Origin: Nocardia vinacea
Lineage (GTDB): Bacteria; Actinomycetota; Actinomycetes; Mycobacteriales; Mycobacteriaceae
NCBI RefSeq assembly: GCF_035920345.1
Contig: NZ_CP109149.1
Coordinates: 7,626,001 to 7,690,000 of the forward strand
Reading direction: 5' to 3'
DNA: 64,000 bases
The notes beneath the pieces were generated by a model. That model was not told the origin of the DNA. It saw only the letters and a list, made by a program, of their open reading frames with translations, and searched no databases. Position numbers and translations under genes: made by a program. This document shows, piece after piece, positions 9,940-52,988 of the stretch (positions are counted from its first letter, which is position 1; each line of letters starts with the position of its first letter).

Positions 9940-11156
9940 TGCGCATGCGAATGGCCGGTGCGGCAATCGGATTGGCCGTCGTGCTCGGAGTCAGCGGCTG
10001 CGAATGGGACGGGCTCAATTCGCTGCCCATGCCCGGTACGGCCGGAAGTGATAACGCCTACGAAGTCAAGATCCAGATGCCCAATGTCACCACGCTGACC
10101 CGTAATTCGCCGGTCCGCGTGAACGACGTGACGGTCGGCACGGTGTCGAAGATCGAGGTCGAGGGCTGGCACGCGCTGGTCACCGTCTCGTTGAACAACG
10201 ATGTGAAGCTGCCCGCCAATGCGACCGCCCGAATCGGGCAGACCAGCCTGCTCGGCAGCAATCATCTAGAGCTCGCCGCGCCGAAAGATGTTCCGGCACA
10301 GGGGGAGCTGAAGAACGGCGATCTGATCCCGCTGGACCGGGCCGGTGTCTATCCGACCACCGAGCAGACCTTGTCATCGCTGTCGGTGGTGCTCAACGGC
10401 GGCGGCATCAGTCAGCTCGAAACCATTACCCACGAACTCAATGCCGCATTCAACGGTCGCGAGGATGCGATCCGGGATCTGCTGCCGCAGCTGACCGAGC
10501 TGACCACCACACTGGATTCCCAAACCAAGGACATCATCGATGCGATGGGTGGACTGGACCGGTTCGCAGGCACGCTGGCCAAGCAGAAGGATCGGGTGGC
10601 CGCGGCGATCGAACAGATCCATCCGGCGCTCACCGTGCTCGCCGATCGGCGCGAGGACATCACGCACACCCTTACCGCCCTTGGTGATCTGAGCGATGTG
10701 GTGCAGCGGATCATCGCGCAGGGTGGGGACAATCTGAAGGCGAATCTGGCGAATCTGGCACCCGTGCTGGAGACGCTGGCGAGCACCGGGAACAGCCTGG
10801 TCGAGGTCTTGAAGCTGATCTTCACCTTCCCGTTCCCGATGAAGAATCTCGATCACGCGGTCAAGGGCGACTACATGAACCTGATCATGACCGTCGATAT
10901 CACCGGCAAGCGATTGGATTCGAACTTCCTCACCGGCACTCCGCTCGGCGGTCGGTTCGGCGGGGTCGAGGGTGCACTCGGCGGGCTGGCCGGTACGGCG
11001 GAGGGCAATAGCAATCCGTCGACGGCACCGCTGCAGTCACCGGGCGCCACTCCGGCTCCGACGCCGAGTATCCCTGGGCTGCCGCCGATTCCGGGTCTGC
11101 CCGCGATTCCCGGCCTCACCGTTCCGCCCGCCGGGCAGGAAGGTGCGGGCCGATGA
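9936..11156 (+). CDS. mce4E: Mce4E lipoprotein (LprN-type), steroid-uptake subunit
   Basis: A 406-residue MCE lipoprotein. The signal peptide ends in the lipobox VSGC with the lipidated Cys22, followed by the MCE domain (MPNVTTLTRNSPVRVNDV). As in all actinobacterial mce operons, the fifth mce gene is the lipoprotein. The C-terminal ~45 residues are very rich in Pro, Gly and Ala (repeats of PGLPPIPGLPAIPGL type), which probably form an unfolded tail. It overlaps mce4D and mce4F by 4 bp each. Confidence 0.94.
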   Translation: MMRMRMAGAAIGLAVVLGVSGCEWDGLNSLPMPGTAGSDNAYEVKIQMPNVTTLTRNSPVRVNDVTVGTVSKIEVEGWHALVTVSLNNDVKLPANATARIGQTSLLGSNHLELAAPKDVPAQGELKNGDLIPLDRAGVYPTTEQTLSSLSVVLNGGGISQLETITHELNAAFNGREDAIRDLLPQLTELTTTLDSQTKDIIDAMGGLDRFAGTLAKQKDRVAAAIEQIHPALTVLADRREDITHTLTALGDLSDVVQRIIAQGGDNLKANLANLAPVLETLASTGNSLVEVLKLIFTFPFPMKNLDHAVKGDYMNLIMTVDITGKRLDSNFLTGTPLGGRFGGVEGALGGLAGTAEGNSNPSTAPLQSPGATPAPTPSIPGLPPIPGLPAIPGLTVPPAGQEGAGR

Positions 11157-12559
11157 AACTCACGCGATTCGTCCGGATCCAGTTGGCCATCTTCTCGGTG
11201 CTGACGGTGATCGGCTTGGTGGTCATGGGCGGTACCTATGTGGGACTGCCCGCCATGTTCGGTATCGGCCGCTATGAGGTGACGGTAAAGCTATTGGCCA
11301 CCGGCGGGCTGTATCCGACGGCCAATGTCGCCTACCGCGGCACGAATGTCGGCAAGGTGGAAGAGGTTCGGCTCACCCCGACGGGTGTGGACGCGAAGCT
11401 GTCTATCAATAGCGATTACAAGATTCCGTCCGATGTCGACGCGTGGGTGCGCAGTGTCTCGGCCATCGGTGAGCAGTACGTCGATCTGGTGCCCGTCGCG
11501 AATGTCAAGGGCGGCAACCTTTCCGACGGTTCGGTGATTCAGGTGGATCGCACCAGGCTGCCCGAGGATATCGGCACCGTGCTCGATCGATCCGATCGTC
11601 TGCTGTCCAGCATTGCCGATACCAAGCTCCGGCAGGTGATCGACGATGCGTTCAAGGCCTTCAACGGCGCCGGACCGGATCTGCAGAAGTTCATCGATTC
11701 CGCGTCGCTGCTGGTGCAGGAGGCTCAGGCGAATGCCGAGCCGACCAAAGATCTGCTGGAAAAGATCGGGCCGCTGCTGGATACGCAGAATCAGTCCGAT
11801 GCGGCGATCCGGTCGTGGACCCAGGACCTGGCGACGGTCACCGACCAACTGCGCGCCCATGATCCGGCACTGCGGAATGTCATCGAGAAGACGCCCGGCG
11901 CGGCACAGCAGGTGAGTTCGCTGTTCCAGGACCTGCGTCCGACCCTGCCGATCCTGCTGTCGAATTTGGTCAGCGTGGGGCAGGTCGCGGTGACCTATCA
12001 CTCGGGTCTGGAACAGATCCTCGTGATTTATCCGCCGCTGACCGCCGCGTTCCTGACGGTCATCCGCGGCCCCGTCGAATACGGTGCCGTGGTGGACTTC
12101 CACCTGGAACTCAACGATCCGCCCGGCTGCACCACCGGCTTCCTCACGCCGGAACAGCGCCGCTCGCCCGCCCAGCTCGACACCCCGGATACGCCGCCCG
12201 GGCTCTACTGCAAGGTGGCGCAGAACGCCAAGGAAGCCGTGCGCGGTATCCGCAATACGCCGTGCATGGAAGTGCCGGGTAAGCGGGCGCCATCGCCGGA
12301 GCTGTGCCGCGACCCGAACGGCTATGTGCCCGAAGGCAATAACCCGGCGTTCGGACCGCCGCAGCCGGTGACACCGTCGGGTGACCCGATCGGCGATCAG
12401 GGCTCCACCCACCCGGCCGCACACAGTACGACATTGGATCCCGGCAGTGGGACGTTCATGGGACCGGACGGACGCACGTACCGTCAGGGGGATATCGGAA
12501 AGGACGGATCCGGCACGATACCGTCGAGTTGGCAGGCGATGCTTCAGGAGCAGCAGTAG
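11153..12559 (+). CDS. mce4F: Mce4F, MCE-family steroid-uptake protein
   Basis: A 468-residue MCE protein, last of the six. The membrane anchor is at about 9-30, the MCE domain includes ATGGLYPTANVAYRGTNVG, and a long helical domain follows. The extracytoplasmic tail contains four cysteines (PPGCTTGF, LYCKVAQ, TPCMEVP, ELCRDPN), probably two disulfides. The TAG stop at 12557-12559 is joined directly to a family-A repeat: the G of TAG is the first base of the repeat's GTG. Confidence 0.93.
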   Translation: MKLTRFVRIQLAIFSVLTVIGLVVMGGTYVGLPAMFGIGRYEVTVKLLATGGLYPTANVAYRGTNVGKVEEVRLTPTGVDAKLSINSDYKIPSDVDAWVRSVSAIGEQYVDLVPVANVKGGNLSDGSVIQVDRTRLPEDIGTVLDRSDRLLSSIADTKLRQVIDDAFKAFNGAGPDLQKFIDSASLLVQEAQANAEPTKDLLEKIGPLLDTQNQSDAAIRSWTQDLATVTDQLRAHDPALRNVIEKTPGAAQQVSSLFQDLRPTLPILLSNLVSVGQVAVTYHSGLEQILVIYPPLTAAFLTVIRGPVEYGAVVDFHLELNDPPGCTTGFLTPEQRRSPAQLDTPDTPPGLYCKVAQNAKEAVRGIRNTPCMEVPGKRAPSPELCRDPNGYVPEGNNPAFGPPQPVTPSGDPIGDQGSTHPAAHSTTLDPGSGTFMGPDGRTYRQGDIGKDGSGTIPSSWQAMLQEQQ

Positions 12560-12639
12560 TGAGAGAGCGCAGCGAACGAACAATGTCACAGCGTGCTTCG
12601 CGCATGCCGGAACCGAGCGTCAGCGAGGTGCAGGCATGA
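12559..12639 (+). repeat. Family A element, copy 1: 26-codon mini-ORF coupled to mam4A
   Basis: An 81-nt element beginning GTGAGAGAGCGCAGCGAACG and ending GAGGTGCAGGCATGA. It is a complete 26-codon frame (VRERSERTMSQRASRMP, then EPSVSEVQA). Its TGA overlaps the ATG of mam4A as ATGA, and its GTG overlaps the mce4F stop. The GGAG in CAGGAGCAGCAG before it is a possible ribosome site. Two more copies, at 28400-28480 and at 52908-52988 on the minus strand, have the same length, open frame and overlap. Whether the peptide is made is unknown. Confidence 0.85.
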
Positions 12640-13364
12640 GTGAATCCAGTGTGGTCAAGGCCCGGCCCAGGCGACGGGCGGTGCGTTCGGCAGGTCCGCC
12701 GCCGGAGGACACCATCCCGCTCGAGACCGAAGGTGTCGAGCTGACCAAGGCCGTCGATGTCACCGTCAAGGTGACGAAGTCGGATTCGGACAGCCCGAGC
12801 GACGATGCCGAACCCGTGACCACGCTGGAGATACCCAGCGTCGCGGATGTCGTCGATGACGCTCCGAAGTCCGGCCCGCCGCGCTGGGTGTTCATCGCAG
12901 GTGCCGCCGCGGCCGTGGTCGTGGCGATCGCGCTGGTGATCGGCACCGGATTCTTCGCCTCCAACCTGCACACCGCATCCGACCGCGATGCGCGGCGCGC
13001 GGACTACGTGCAGACCGCCAAGCAGGCGATTCTCAATCTCACCACCATCAAGGACGACACTGCCAAGGCCGATATCGACCGCGTCCTCGCGGTGGCCTCC
13101 GGCGAACTCAAGGCCGAATACTCGCAGCGCAAGGACGCCTACGCGAGCGTGGTCGAACAGGCCAAGGTGAAGGCCACCGGTGAGATCATCGAATCCGCCA
13201 TCGAGAGCGAGGACGGGGATTCGGCACGCGTGCTGGTCGCCGCCAAACAGACCCTGACCAATGCGGGCATGGCGGATCCGCAGACGCGGTACTACCGATT
13301 CCGGGTCACCGTCACCCGCGGCGACAACGGGATCACCGCCTCACAAGTGGAGTTCGTAGCATGA
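12636..13364 (+). CDS. mam4A: Mam4A, Mce-associated membrane protein
   Basis: A 242-residue protein with an 83-residue charged cytoplasmic N-terminus, one membrane segment (about 84-107) and an extracytoplasmic domain of the Mce-associated (Mam) type with KQAILNLTTIKDD and a beta-rich end (YYRFRVTVTRGDNG). It corresponds in position to Rv3493c, downstream of mce4F. Mam proteins are thought to stabilise Mce complexes. The ATG start and the GAGGTGCAG stretch before it belong to the family-A repeat. Confidence 0.88.
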   Translation: MSESSVVKARPRRRAVRSAGPPPEDTIPLETEGVELTKAVDVTVKVTKSDSDSPSDDAEPVTTLEIPSVADVVDDAPKSGPPRWVFIAGAAAAVVVAIALVIGTGFFASNLHTASDRDARRADYVQTAKQAILNLTTIKDDTAKADIDRVLAVASGELKAEYSQRKDAYASVVEQAKVKATGEIIESAIESEDGDSARVLVAAKQTLTNAGMADPQTRYYRFRVTVTRGDNGITASQVEFVA

Positions 13365-20770: not shown

Positions 20771-20842
20771 GCCTCCTTAGCTCAGTGGTAGAGCACCGCT
20801 CTTGTAAAGCGAAGGTCGTCAGTTCAATCCTGACAGGGGGCT
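20771..20842 (+). tRNA. tRNA-Thr (anticodon TGT)
   Basis: Folds into a full cloverleaf: acceptor GCCTCCT with AGGGGGC, D stem GCTC/GAGC, anticodon loop CTTGTAA reading TGT, T stem GTCAG/CTGAC with loop TTCAATC, discriminator T. The CCA end is not encoded. There is one mismatch at the base of the anticodon stem (C-A). A truncated 5' copy lies at 20031. Confidence 0.95.
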
Positions 20843-27754: not shown

Positions 27755-28393
27755 GTGATAACCGCGACGACCCCGAAAGGCGAACGGCGTCGCCAGGCTT
27801 TGGTAGCGGCCGCCGCCGAGTTGTTACTCGAAGGCGGATTCGATGCGGTGCGGCATCGCTCGGTCGCAACGCGCGCCGACCTTCCGCTGGCGTCGACGAC
27901 GTACTACTTCGAGTCGCTCGATGATCTGATCGCGCGAGCGGTCGAATTCAGCGGCAATTCGGAGCTGGACGCGATGCGGCGTCGAGTCGGCGAGGTGAGC
28001 CACCGCAGACGCGGCGCGGAGGCGACCGTCGACCTGGTGTTGGACCTGCTGGTGGGGTCGGACGGAAACGACGAGGGCGCACGCGGGCAGCTCATCGCGC
28101 GCTATGAGCGTTCGGTGGCCTCGGCGCGGCATCCGGAACTGCGGGAAGTGCAGCTCCGACTAAGGGCGCAGCTGGACGAGTTGCTCGCCGATGTGCTGCG
28201 CCGCTCCGATCGGGCGGTTCGGGCGGAGCAGATGCGCAGGATGGTCGCGGTGGTCGACGGGGCCGTGGTGGCAGCGCTGAGCGAAATGGACCCGGAGCCA
28301 AGGCGAATGGCGCGCGGTGCGTTGCTCGAGGTCATCGATATCGTCGCGCCCGCGACGCCGCAGCAGGTCGACAGGTTCCGGACATTAGACTGA
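27755..28393 (+). CDS. TetR-family transcriptional regulator
   Basis: A 212-residue regulator. The DNA-binding domain spans about 9-55 (RRQALVAAAAELLLEGGFDA, VRHRSVATRADLPLASTTYY). The rest is an all-helical ligand domain rich in Arg and Glu. Start is GTG 27755. It is followed by a family-A repeat and purB in the same direction, so it could be in the purB transcript. The target and ligand are unknown; M. tuberculosis has a TetR gene (Rv0775) near purB too. Confidence 0.85.
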   Translation: MITATTPKGERRRQALVAAAAELLLEGGFDAVRHRSVATRADLPLASTTYYFESLDDLIARAVEFSGNSELDAMRRRVGEVSHRRRGAEATVDLVLDLLVGSDGNDEGARGQLIARYERSVASARHPELREVQLRLRAQLDELLADVLRRSDRAVRAEQMRRMVAVVDGAVVAALSEMDPEPRRMARGALLEVIDIVAPATPQQVDRFRTLD

Positions 28394-28399
28394 CAAGAC

Positions 28400-28480
28400 G
28401 TGAGAGAGCGCAGCGAGCGAACCAAAGGCACAGCGCCCCGGCGTACGACGGAGCCGAGCGCTAGCGAGGCGCAGTCGTGA
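28400..28480 (+). repeat. Family A element, copy 2: 26-codon mini-ORF coupled to purB
   Basis: An 81-nt element starting GTGAGAGAGCGCAGCGAGCG and ending GAGGCGCAGTCGTGA. The frame reads VRERSERTKGTAPRRT then TEPSASEAQS, 26 codons and a stop. The TGA overlaps the GTG start of purB as GTGA. The middle differs from copy 1 in most bases but remains open and of the same length; the ends are conserved. The purB start and the GCGAGGCGCAG before it are part of the repeat. Confidence 0.85.
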
Positions 28481-29898
28481 GCCTCGTCCCGAACGTCCTT
28501 GCCACCCGATACGCCAGCCCCGAGTTGGTGCATCTCTGGTCGCCCGAGAACAAGATCGTGCTCGAGCGGCGGCTGTGGCTGGAGGTGTTGCGGGCGCAGT
28601 CCGAACTCGGCATCGATCTGCCCGCAGGCGTCATCGACGATTACGAGCGGGTCATCGATCAGGTGGATCTCGCCTCGATCGCCGAGCGTGAGCGGGTCAC
28701 CCGCCACGACGTGAAGGCGCGCATCGAGGAATTCAATGGACTGGCCGGGCACGAGCATGTGCACAAGGGCATGACCAGCCGCGATCTCACCGAGAATGTG
28801 GAGCAGCTGCAGATCCGGCTCTCGCTCGTGCATGTGCACGCGCACGGTGTCGCGGTGGCGGCACGGTTGGCCGAGCGCGCCGCCGAGTACCACGCGCTGG
28901 TGATGGCGGGTCGTTCGCACAATGTCGCCGCCCAGGCCACCACGCTGGGCAAGCGGTTCGCCTCCGCCGCCGACGAACTGCTGATCGCGCTGACCCGCCT
29001 GCGGGAGCTCATCGACCGCTACCCGCTGCGCGGTATCAAGGGCCCGATGGGCACCGCGCAGGACATGCTCGATCTGCTCGGCGGCGATTCGGCCAAGCTT
29101 GCGACGCTGGAGCAGCAGGTCGCGCGGCATCTCGGCTTCGCGAATGTGCTGACCAGTGTCGGCCAGGTGTATCCGCGCTCGCTCGATCACGATGTGCTGT
29201 CGGCGCTCGTGCAGGTCGGTTCGGGTCCGTCGTCGTTCGCGCACACCATTCGGTTGATGGCGGGCCACGAACTGGTCACCGAGGGCTTCCAGCCCGGCCA
29301 GGTCGGCAGTTCCGCCATGCCGCACAAGATGAACACCCGCTCCTGCGAGCGCGTCAACGGGCTGCAGGTGGTGCTGCGCGGTTACGCCTCGATGGCCGCC
29401 GAACTCGCTGGCGCGCAATGGAATGAGGGCGATGTCTTCTGCTCGGTGGTGCGCCGTGTCGCGCTGCCGGACGCCTTCTTCGCCATCGACGGCATGATCG
29501 AAACCTTCCTCACGGTGCTCACCGAATTCGGCGCCTACCCCGCCGTCATCGCCCGCGAACTCGACCGCTACCTGCCCTTCCTGGCCACCACCCGCATGCT
29601 CATCGCGGCCGTGCGCGCCGGGGTGGGCCGCGAAACCGCCCACGAGGTAATCAAGGAACACGCGGTAGCCGTCGCCCTCGCCATGCGCGAACAAGGTCGC
29701 GAACCCGACCTGCTGGACCGCCTGGCCGCCGACTCCCGCTTCCCGTTGGACCGCGCCGAATTGGATGCCGCCCTGGCCGACAAGTCCGCCTTCATCGGCG
29801 CCGCCGAAGCCCAGGTTTCCGATGTGGTCGCCGCCGTCCAAAAGCTCGTGGACCAATACCCCGACGCCGCTCGCTACACCCCGTCGCCGATCCTCTAA
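28477..29898 (+). CDS. purB: Adenylosuccinate lyase PurB
   Basis: A 473-residue fumarase-superfamily enzyme that acts twice: cleaving SAICAR to AICAR in IMP synthesis and adenylosuccinate to AMP. The signature loop GSSAMPHKMNTRSCERV is intact; TSRDLTENVEQLQ and AGRSHNVAAQATTLGKR are the other active-site segments. The GTG at 28477 (VSLVPNVLATRYASPELV) is supplied by the family-A element, so translation may be coupled to the mini-ORF. In M. tuberculosis purC follows close by; it is not present here. Confidence 0.95.
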   Translation: MSLVPNVLATRYASPELVHLWSPENKIVLERRLWLEVLRAQSELGIDLPAGVIDDYERVIDQVDLASIAERERVTRHDVKARIEEFNGLAGHEHVHKGMTSRDLTENVEQLQIRLSLVHVHAHGVAVAARLAERAAEYHALVMAGRSHNVAAQATTLGKRFASAADELLIALTRLRELIDRYPLRGIKGPMGTAQDMLDLLGGDSAKLATLEQQVARHLGFANVLTSVGQVYPRSLDHDVLSALVQVGSGPSSFAHTIRLMAGHELVTEGFQPGQVGSSAMPHKMNTRSCERVNGLQVVLRGYASMAAELAGAQWNEGDVFCSVVRRVALPDAFFAIDGMIETFLTVLTEFGAYPAVIARELDRYLPFLATTRMLIAAVRAGVGRETAHEVIKEHAVAVALAMREQGREPDLLDRLAADSRFPLDRAELDAALADKSAFIGAAEAQVSDVVAAVQKLVDQYPDAARYTPSPIL

Positions 29899-52620: not shown

Positions 52621-52911
52621 TCAGGCGACGGATTTGAACGGATCGTGCTCCGCCATCAGCTTTTCCATCCGCGCCTCGTCCAAGCGGCGGCTGATGGTCG
52701 CCGATTCCTGTTGGTCGCGAACGACCTTCGCCAGGGTGAAGGCGCTCGACACCAGGAACAGTACGGACATGCCGAGGAAGCCGCGCTGTGCGATATCGAG
52801 TGGCAGGTAGAAGATGCCGACGCCGGTTCCGAAGAAGCTGACGCCGAACGCGATCGCGGCTTGCGCGAGGAAGGCCGAAGAGGTTTTCGGGCGGGCGTTG
52901 GGATTGCTCAT
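52621..52911 (-). CDS. YiaA/YiaB-type two-helix membrane protein
   Basis: A 96-residue protein with two membrane segments (about 13-35 and 44-64) joined by YLPLDIAQRGFLG, typical of the YiaA/YiaB family, then a charged tail (DEARMEKLMAEHDPF). ATG 52911 is provided by a family-A repeat, whose mini-ORF stop overlaps it (ATGA). It lies between the two paralogous membrane hydrolases but on the opposite strand. Function unknown. Confidence 0.8.
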   Translation of the reverse strand: MSNPNARPKTSSAFLAQAAIAFGVSFFGTGVGIFYLPLDIAQRGFLGMSVLFLVSSAFTLAKVVRDQQESATISRRLDEARMEKLMAEHDPFKSVA

Positions 52912-52988
52912 GCCTGCGCCTCGCTGACGCTCGGCTCCGGCATGCGCAAGGCGCGCCGGCACATTATTCGTTCGCTTCGCTCACTCAT
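52908..52988 (-). repeat. Family A element, copy 3: 26-codon mini-ORF coupled to yiaA-like gene
   Basis: On the minus strand, 81 nt starting ATGAGTGAGCGAAGCGAACG and ending GAGGCGCAGGCATGA. The frame reads MSERSERIMCRRALRMPEPS then VSEAQA, 26 codons plus TGA, which overlaps the ATG of the YiaA-like gene. This copy is closest to copy 1 in its second half. The common peptide pattern of the three copies is xxERSERx(8)...EPSxSExQx. Confidence 0.85.

What the first reader, a model, noticed from the sequence alone, without database searches (positions are those of the whole stretch)
12559..12639. An 81-nt repeat family encoding a 26-codon leader fused by ATGA to the next gene
Three copies (here, 28400-28480, and 52908-52988 on the minus strand) have the same length and the same open frame of 26 codons. 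In each the stop overlaps the downstream start codon, and the purine-rich GCGAGG(T/C)GCAG before that start belongs to the repeat. The peptides share ERSER near the N-terminus and EPSxSExQ near the C-terminus, while the middle varies but never breaks the frame. A random repeat would not keep the frame. It may be a mobile translation-start cassette that couples its host gene to a leader peptide.
Basis: seen in the sequence. Interest (0 to 1): 0.85.

Follow-up and report, generated by a model that had tools for sequence, protein, structure and literature searches.

The report
Mobile start-codon cassette matching its target
A tiny repeated DNA cassette in Nocardia sits exactly on the start codons of many genes, puts a short reading frame in front of each, and usually carries a few letters complementary to the gene it sits in front of, which is not expected of a simple jumping repeat.

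Summary
The three 81-nt copies belong to a family of at least 145 whole or partial copies in this 10.4-Mb Nocardia-like genome. 112 carry DTGA at both ends; 93 of those keep an open leader frame whose TGA overlaps the next start codon. Empty orthologous sites show precise insertion at start codons. Mycobacterial MIRUs are described the same way (PMC12548453), so the mobile leader cassette is a known kind.

New here: the 3' half is a covarying hairpin enclosing the downstream start codon. It extends into the host gene: about five interior bases of each copy tend to be complementary to bases +1..+5 after that copy's own DTGA. Own genome (+2..+6): 279 pairs, maximum 236 in 20,000 permutations; replicated twice. 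The match needs neither an intact leader nor a downstream gene, does not grow with divergence, and near-identical siblings rarely share it. That points to something set at or soon after insertion; guided targeting, templated copying and selection all remain open. Translational coupling was not measured.

The parts
12559..12639 (+). Copy 1 of the element = 26-codon leader frame GTG...TGA, between an MCE gene and a small downstream gene
12597..12601 (+). Copy 1 guide (TTCGC), complementary to host bases 12640-12644 (GTGAA), one of the five pairs being G-U
12603..12638 (+). Copy 1 start-codon hairpin: CATGCC (12603-12608) pairs with GGCATG (12633-12638); apical stem between
12625..12628 (+). Copy 1 SD-like GAGG, 7 nt before the downstream ATG
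12636..13364 (+). Downstream gene of copy 1 (242 aa, no Pfam family), start overlaps the leader stop as ATGA
12640..12644 (+). Host bases +1..+5 paired by the copy 1 guide
11153..12559 (+). Upstream MCE-family gene (MlaD, Mce4_CUP1); its TAG stop shares one base with the element's GTG
28400..28480 (+). Copy 2 of the element = 26-codon leader frame
28438..28442 (+). Copy 2 guide; pairs with 3 of 5 host bases 28481-28485 (weak match)
28444..28479 (+). Copy 2 start-codon hairpin TACGAC...GTCGTG
28477..29898 (+). purB-like gene (Lyase_1, ADSL_C), GTGA overlap with the leader; several relatives have no element at this start, one (L189) has
27755..28393 (+). TetR-family gene upstream of copy 2
52908..52988 (-). 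Copy 3 of the element = 26-codon leader frame ATG...TGA
52946..52950 (-). Copy 3 guide (CTTGC), complementary to 4 of 5 host bases 52903-52907 (GCAAT)
52909..52944 (-). Copy 3 start-codon hairpin CATGCC...GGCATG
52621..52911 (-). YiaA/B two-helix protein gene, ATGA overlap with the leader

Best explanation
The repeat is a MIRU-like non-autonomous mobile cassette. It inserts exactly at a gene's start codon, so that DTGA stands at both ends (shown by empty sites). The leader of mostly 23-28 codons then lies where the host gene used to start, and the host gene starts at the overlapping DTG behind the element's GAGG (shown as anatomy). The 3' half forms a hairpin that encloses the host start codon and part of the SD-like sequence and continues for about five more pairs into codons 2-3 of the host gene, with a different, host-matched sequence in most copies (shown by covariation). 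Inferred: a ribosome translating the leader opens this hairpin, stops at the TGA and re-initiates on the overlapping start, so the host gene becomes dependent on the leader. My preferred origin of the match is that it is set at, or soon after, insertion by copying the target in reverse complement into the element (target-templated synthesis or template switching); I give that origin about 0.4 on its own.
For: Precise junctions against empty sites, e.g. hemA, msrA, dut and ppk. Frame kept in 93 of 112; lengths in threes. At six lysA loci of other species, scored empty by the profile, I read by eye a 30-nt remnant with leader frame and overlap intact. Start-codon stem covaries: the start-codon base pairs in 91 of 97 distinct copies, shuffle mean 69, maximum 77; position -33/-6 in 85 of 97, mean 45, maximum 58. 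Guide-host pairing: own genome, +2..+6, 279 against shuffle maximum 236 of 20,000; relatives, +1..+5 Watson-Crick, 161 against maximum 128; named genomes 162 against maximum 127. Folding with the own flank is lower than the mean with other flanks in 66 of 83 copies. Set early: 25 broken-leader copies 3.40/5 against permuted 2.40 and 25 copies without a downstream ORF of 60 aa or more 3.48 against 2.60, both p=0.0001 (9 copies are in both groups); least diverged copies match best; nearest siblings within 5 of 57 mismatches share the guide triplet in 4 of 31 cases.
Against: No expression or ribosome data. Single-sequence folds of the three window copies are not more stable than shuffles (z 0.13, -0.68, -0.33). 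The start codon is fully paired in the predicted fold of 68 of 83 copies, not all. Same-gene copies in other species show matched guide/host changes (sepF, argR), which fits selection or ongoing rewriting. The decline of match with core divergence is weak and not always significant: rho -0.19, p=0.006, n=201; own genome alone -0.15, p=0.19; main types -0.17, p=0.057; nearest-sibling distance -0.13, p=0.25; copies are not independent. Guides of close siblings are more alike than chance (p=0.0005). No transposase was sought or identified.
Confidence: 0.68

Rival explanations
1. Self-guided targeting: the five interior bases are an inherited guide that base-pairs with the target and decides where the copy inserts, as the guide sequences of IS200/IS605 transposons or the RNAs of IS110-type elements do (recalled comparisons).
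For: Guide matches its own site in three data sets, with the signal ending at about +5 (+6 in one subtype). Empty relatives' sites already match above chance: 3.23/5 against 2.82, p=0.011. The two closest siblings share a guide and hit near-identical targets (gcgtt, gcggt). Guides (p=0.0005) and host bases +1..+5 (p=0.016) of siblings are more alike than chance.
Against: Host bases +3..+5 of siblings are not more alike than chance (1.75 against 1.82, p=0.26) and nearest siblings share the guide triplet in only 4 of 31 cases, so the informative part of the guide is mostly not inherited.
Confidence: 0.25
2. Selection after insertion: the hairpin is a translational lock and each copy has evolved to pair with the first codons of its own host gene, like an attenuator.
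For: Matched guide/host changes between same-gene copies (sepF L256 versus L326 and L340; argR L373 versus L427). The own flank matches better than the empty relatives' flanks (3.81 against 3.23). RNA unfolding is an accepted model of coupling (PMC12548453 section 8, read whole).
Against: Copies with a broken leader or without a downstream ORF match about as well, and the match does not rise with divergence.
Confidence: 0.25
3. Ordinary interspersed DNA repeat (REP or MITE-like) whose frame and start-codon position are incidental.
For: Small, no protein gene inside beyond the leader, about 150 copies.
Against: 79 of 112 at 100-aa ORF starts against 31% background; frame kept in 93 of 112; exact start-codon junctions.
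Confidence: 0.03
4. A conserved functional leader peptide (ERSER...EPSxSExQ) is the reason for the repeat.
For: Third codon positions are the most variable in the 5' half (0.42 against 0.23 and 0.33).
Against: Third positions are the least variable in the 3' half. A subtype with a +1 insertion near the left end reads a different peptide there yet keeps an open frame (sequences; codons 5-7 CAG, CGA, GTG in 10, 14 and 10 of 69 copies). The lysA remnants keep 9 codons with variable ends (by eye).
Confidence: 0.04

Closest known systems
Mycobacterial interspersed repetitive units (MIRU; Supply et al. 1997, seen only as cited)
   Same: 46-101 bp elements at 41 loci, 12 of them variable in tandem copy number (PMC3914561, passage; PMC2734929, passages); said to be mobile, to insert at start codons and to couple an internal ORF to the host gene with -4 nt spacing (PMC12548453, passage).
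   Different: No sequence match found: the profile hit 0 of 39 genomes of 30 other genera in the same family (the genera are unnamed, so I cannot say Mycobacterium was among them). Here the element has a covarying start-codon hairpin and a host-matched guide; whether real MIRUs have these I could not test (a recalled M. tuberculosis marker primer gave 0 hits).
Translational coupling by RNA unfolding (phage f1 VII/IX, MS2 coat-lysis, E. coli rpmI-rplT)
   Same: Start site of the downstream gene enclosed in a hairpin that an upstream ribosome would open (PMC12548453 section 8).
   Different: Those are fixed gene pairs; here a mobile element brings leader, RBS-like sequence and hairpin, and part of the hairpin is host sequence.
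IS200/IS605 guide sequences and IS110-type RNA guides (recalled, no call)
   Same: Short internal sequence complementary to the target.
   Different: No transposase was sought; DTGA stands at both ends; the guide is mostly not shared between siblings.
Template-switch creation of RNA hairpins (PMC8794818, abstract and opening of the introduction seen)
   Same: Reverse-complement copies of neighbouring sequence create or repair stems in one event.
   Different: Described for replication errors in RNA genes, not for a mobile element at its insertion site.

Membership tests
MIRU | Dispersed repeat of about 46-101 bp at dozens of loci | tested here: met
   145 matches; of 112 with both ends, 105 are 72-87 nt long
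MIRU | Internal ORF in the direction of the host gene, overlapping its start with -4 spacing | tested here: met
   93 of 112 with intact frame and DTGA overlap; 79 of 112 followed by a 100-aa ORF
MIRU | Tandem copies at some loci | tested here: met
   Arrays with 77- or 80-nt units sharing DTGA, e.g. 5292754-5293065; 17 of 100 copies tandem-flanked by a simple test
MIRU | Sequence homology to M. tuberculosis MIRUs | tested here: inconclusive
   Profile hits 0 of 39 genomes of other genera of the family (strict filters, genera unnamed); MIRU sequences could not be fetched
MIRU | Insertion into DTGA already shared by a stop and a start (recalled from Supply 1997) | tested here: inconclusive
   Met in about a third: in 33 of 97 copies the left TGA ends a coding-like frame (0 and 4 for the other two frames); other counts are 28 of 112 and, laxer, 64 of 112 against 22 and 42 for the other frames
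Rfam families | Match to a described RNA family | tested here: not met
   Window: one tRNA only; four element loci: only sub-threshold mir-4018 matches outside the elements
IS200/IS605-type mobile element | Y1 transposase acting on the element | not tested
   No transposase search was made
Translational attenuator | Leader translation changes downstream expression | not testable with these tools
   No expression data

The most novel reading that the evidence does not exclude
Each insertion of this 81-nt element acquires, or is chosen by, a reverse-complement copy of about nine target bases (DTGA plus five host bases). The element therefore matches its target by base pairing, and in the target-templated version it rewrites its own interior at every jump, producing a host-specific start-codon lock in one step. 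That would be a mode of insertion that I have not seen described for MIRUs, MITEs or guided transposons.
Probability: 0.45. Interest if true: 0.92.

Novelty: new variant of a known kind. Interest (0 to 1): 0.72.

Why it matters
MIRUs are standard tuberculosis typing markers, yet none of the passages I read here gives a mechanism for how such elements move. A family of at least 145 copies in one genome, most with a readable complement to their own site, gives many natural experiments on targeting. It also offers a natural, portable RNA device that may tie a gene's translation to a leader. If the match is written at insertion it would be a new way for a mobile element to record its target; if it is a guide, it is a very small self-targeting system.

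Tried and rejected
Pure chance repeat: rejected. Peptide selection: not supported in the 3' half. A target-site duplication longer than DTGA: left and right positions agree in 97 of 112 (84.3 expected) at the first base after DTGA, 79 (74.9) at the second and 83 (83.4) at the third, so at most a subtype effect. Start-codon base always from the host on one fixed side: does not hold. At msrA, dut and ppk the empty start is GTG, the own left end GTG and the right end ATG; at ribH and rluD the empty start is ATG, the left end GTG and the right end ATG. Autonomous longer version: by eye no left-only and right-only pieces lie near each other in the list, apart from arrays and one nested copy; no systematic search was made. 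Stability of single folds: no excess over shuffles. A second hairpin between the bases before the guide and the guide itself: suggestive but unclear. M. tuberculosis MIRU comparison: failed. Literature: DTGA with MIRU 0 papers; MIRU name with translational coupling and senX3 0; a six-term search on repeats, start codon, Nocardia, guide, transposition and hairpin 2 unrelated papers. Supply 1997 itself was not seen, only as cited.

Full report
What is there. The three repeats stand at the stated coordinates, each 81 nt, each an open frame of 26 codons from DTG to a TGA that overlaps the next start codon. Copy 1 lies between an MCE-family gene (MlaD, Mce4_CUP1) and a 242-aa gene without Pfam family; copy 2 between a TetR gene and a purB-like gene (Lyase_1, ADSL_C); copy 3 in front of a YiaA/B gene. 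Rfam has no family for them. Gene names below that are not (hemA, msrA, dut, ppk, lysA, argR, sepF and others) are my recognition of the protein sequences, not a tool result.

Family size. A sequence-only profile built from 19 copies finds 145 matches at E up to 0.0015 in the 10.36-Mb single-contig genome, some of them pieces; only 150 of 18,474 candidates were scored, so this is a floor. I fetched all 145 with flanks. 112 of 145 have DTGA at both ends; 93 of these 112 have an intact leader frame; main lengths are 84 (37) and 81 (36), then 72 (9) and 75 (7). Lengths divisible by three: 95 of 112, and 22 of 39 outside the two main lengths, p=0.0025. An in-frame ORF of 100 aa or more follows the right DTG in 79 of 112, against 31% of background sites. 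SD-like 4-mers precede the left start in 52 of 112 (11% at random) and the right start in 110 of 112. In 33 of 97 copies whose left flank is not another copy, the left TGA also ends a coding-like frame, against 0 and 4 for the other two frames, so about a third sit at ready-made stop/start overlaps.

Mobility. I joined N-terminal pieces of ten downstream gene products into single queries, three times (30 genes), and searched relatives, then compared gene starts for the loci I had fetched. 24 of the 30 genes gave a usable comparison; 16 of 24 have at least one ortholog with a clean DTGA start and no element by the profile, 63 loci in all. At sites such as hemA (ggtggtcacacc|ATGAGC) the relative's sequence is the own left flank running straight into the own right flank with one DTGA. 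So insertion is exact at a start codon. A few 'empty' loci may hold decayed remnants. In one search, of 30 lysA loci fetched (44 genomes searched), five are scored as carrying the element; six scored empty (L477, L480, L482, L483, L484, L489) show by eye a 30-nt stretch with a frame of nine codons plus stop, most of them starting like the element's left end, overlapping the lysA start. Of 30 argR loci, five are scored as carrying an element, three of which (L510, L514, L517) look doubtful by eye.

Start-codon hairpin. RNAalifold on 19 copies gave a 3' stem with compensatory changes. Of 112 copies, 100 have the standard 37-nt spacing, 97 distinct; the 12 others were dropped from this count. The stem pairs interior positions -37..-32 with -7..-2, which include the start codon. 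The start-codon base pairs with its interior partner in 91 of 97 (T-A 48, C-G 42), shuffle mean 69, maximum 77; position -33/-6 pairs in 85 of 97, shuffle mean 45, maximum 58; the other four pairs of the stem vary little or on one side, so they say little. All three window copies fold this way, but no more stably than shuffled sequence.

Host-matched extension. Continuing the same stem outwards, positions -43..-39 of the element pair with host bases +1..+5 after DTGA, that is the end of codon 2 and codon 3 of the host gene. After removing tandem-flanked copies (17 of 100, by a simple test) and duplicate guides, 77 remained. Pairs including G-U at +2..+6: own total 279, permutation mean 205.8, maximum 236 in 20,000; by position, own against expected at +3, +4, +5 are 67 against 52.3, 62 against 32.6, 51 against 27.4, and no clear excess at +6 to +11 (largest 35 against 29.6 at +10). 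Replication 1, relatives G003, G005, G007, G008: 47 of 93 copies after removing tandem, shared-gene and duplicate ones; Watson-Crick total at +1..+5 161, permutation mean 103.2, maximum 128; +6 17 against 13.4. Replication 2, exact pattern in named genomes: from 77 of the 80 fetched loci (3 left out as the same genomes as G007 and G008), 46 of 86 right ends after removing tandem ones, ones without a recognised left end and duplicates; total 162, mean 102.6, maximum 127; +6 20 against 14.0. Orthologs of own copies were not removed there; at least two (dut in N. anaemiae, an enoyl-CoA hydratase-like gene in N. aobensis) are the same insertions. By subtype, GGT copies (43) pair at 0.91, 0.86, 0.88 for +3..+5 and 0.60 against 0.31 at +6; GCG copies (65) fall to 0.42 against 0.24 at +5; type C copies (6) do not match at +4 and +5; 49 copies of mixed type match less well.

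Origin of the match. (a) Empty sites: over 16 sites the guide scores 3.81/5 on the own flank (permuted 2.80, p=0.00005) and 3.23 on the empty flanks (permuted 2.82, p=0.011). All models allow this. (b) Function: the match is similar in 25 copies with a broken leader (3.40 against 2.40) and in 25 without a downstream ORF of 60 aa or more (3.48 against 2.60), both p=0.0001, 9 copies being in both groups, as in the 158 functional-looking copies (3.49). This speaks against selection on translation as the origin; small frames, mis-set starts and a heuristic leader test outside the own genome are caveats. (c) Inheritance: close siblings (59 pairs, up to 6 of 57 mismatches) have more similar guides than chance (1.93 against 2.60, p=0.0005) and slightly more similar host bases +1..+5 (p=0.016), but not +3..+5 (p=0.26), and nearest siblings within 5 mismatches share the guide triplet in 4 of 31 cases. 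This speaks against a stably inherited guide. (d) Age: match falls slightly with core divergence (rho -0.19, p=0.006, n=201), but not significantly in the own genome alone (p=0.19), in the main types (p=0.057, n=129) or with nearest-sibling distance (p=0.25); the least diverged class is best with 25 of 47 perfect. Divergence is only a proxy of age. It speaks against slow build-up. (e) But same-gene copies in different species show matched changes on both sides (sepF, argR, lysA) as well as unmatched ones (ppk, the 3314535 gene), so rewriting or selection after insertion also occurs, or insertion recurs. Template switching that creates reverse-complement stems in one event is a described process (PMC8794818, abstract).

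Distribution. The profile hits 5 of 40 other genomes of an order-wide sample (G003, G024, G029, G035, G045) and, in a family-wide sample, G003 of the window's genus but 0 of 39 genomes of 30 other genera; both runs used strict filters. Relatives G005, G008 and G007 hold 72, 40 and 13 matches. Contig lengths suggest G008 is N. vulneris and G007 N. exalbida.

Comparison with the known. A 2025 review states that MIRUs appear mobile, insert at start codons and couple an internal ORF to the host gene with -4 spacing, citing Supply 1997 (PMC12548453: passages, section 8 and half of the reference list seen). The present family works like that. Membership by sequence could not be shown or tested against M. 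tuberculosis. None of the listings I saw describes a host-matched hairpin; they cover titles and abstract starts in an open-licence library that lacks most subscription journals, and only asked for hairpin and guide.

Verdict. Observation confirmed; the mobile cassette idea is right but of a known kind; the host-specific complementarity is robust, replicated and to my knowledge new; its mechanism is open.

Noticed in passing
G000:C1:5637773-5637848 (-) and 6053582-6053641 (-): Left halves of the element run in frame into what look like host proteins (MSERSERTMNRAELGFSTRAVHAGYE..., VSERSERTINRAGPIVIIGAGLAG...), so the leader may have become a protein N-terminus (read by eye).
   Followed up: no
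L477, L480, L482, L483, L484, L489, upstream of lysA: 30-nt stretches that look like left end joined to right end, perhaps by recombination between the GAGCG(C)AGCGAG direct repeats, frame and overlap kept.
   Followed up: partly
G000:C1:5292754-5293065, 1699385-1699628, 5527757-5528000, 6523580-6523772: Tandem arrays of 77- or 80-nt units sharing DTGA; several tandem-flanked copies carry guides (CTCGC, CTCGG) that match the element's own left end GCGAG. They would be VNTR typing loci.
   Followed up: partly
L258, L263, L266, L269 (genome G045): A diverged element with the same left end but another 3' half, also with inverted arms around the start codon; L258 is followed by another copy.
   Followed up: no
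G000:C1:5967390-5967502: One copy appears nested inside another after its first 36 nt.
   Followed up: no
copies with GGG before CATG (e.g. G000:C1:6167531, 5803224): Guide pairing looks better if shifted by one base, as if one linker base is missing in this subtype (by eye).
   Followed up: partly
window 20771-20842 (+): tRNA gene, the only Rfam match of the window at gathering score.
   Followed up: no
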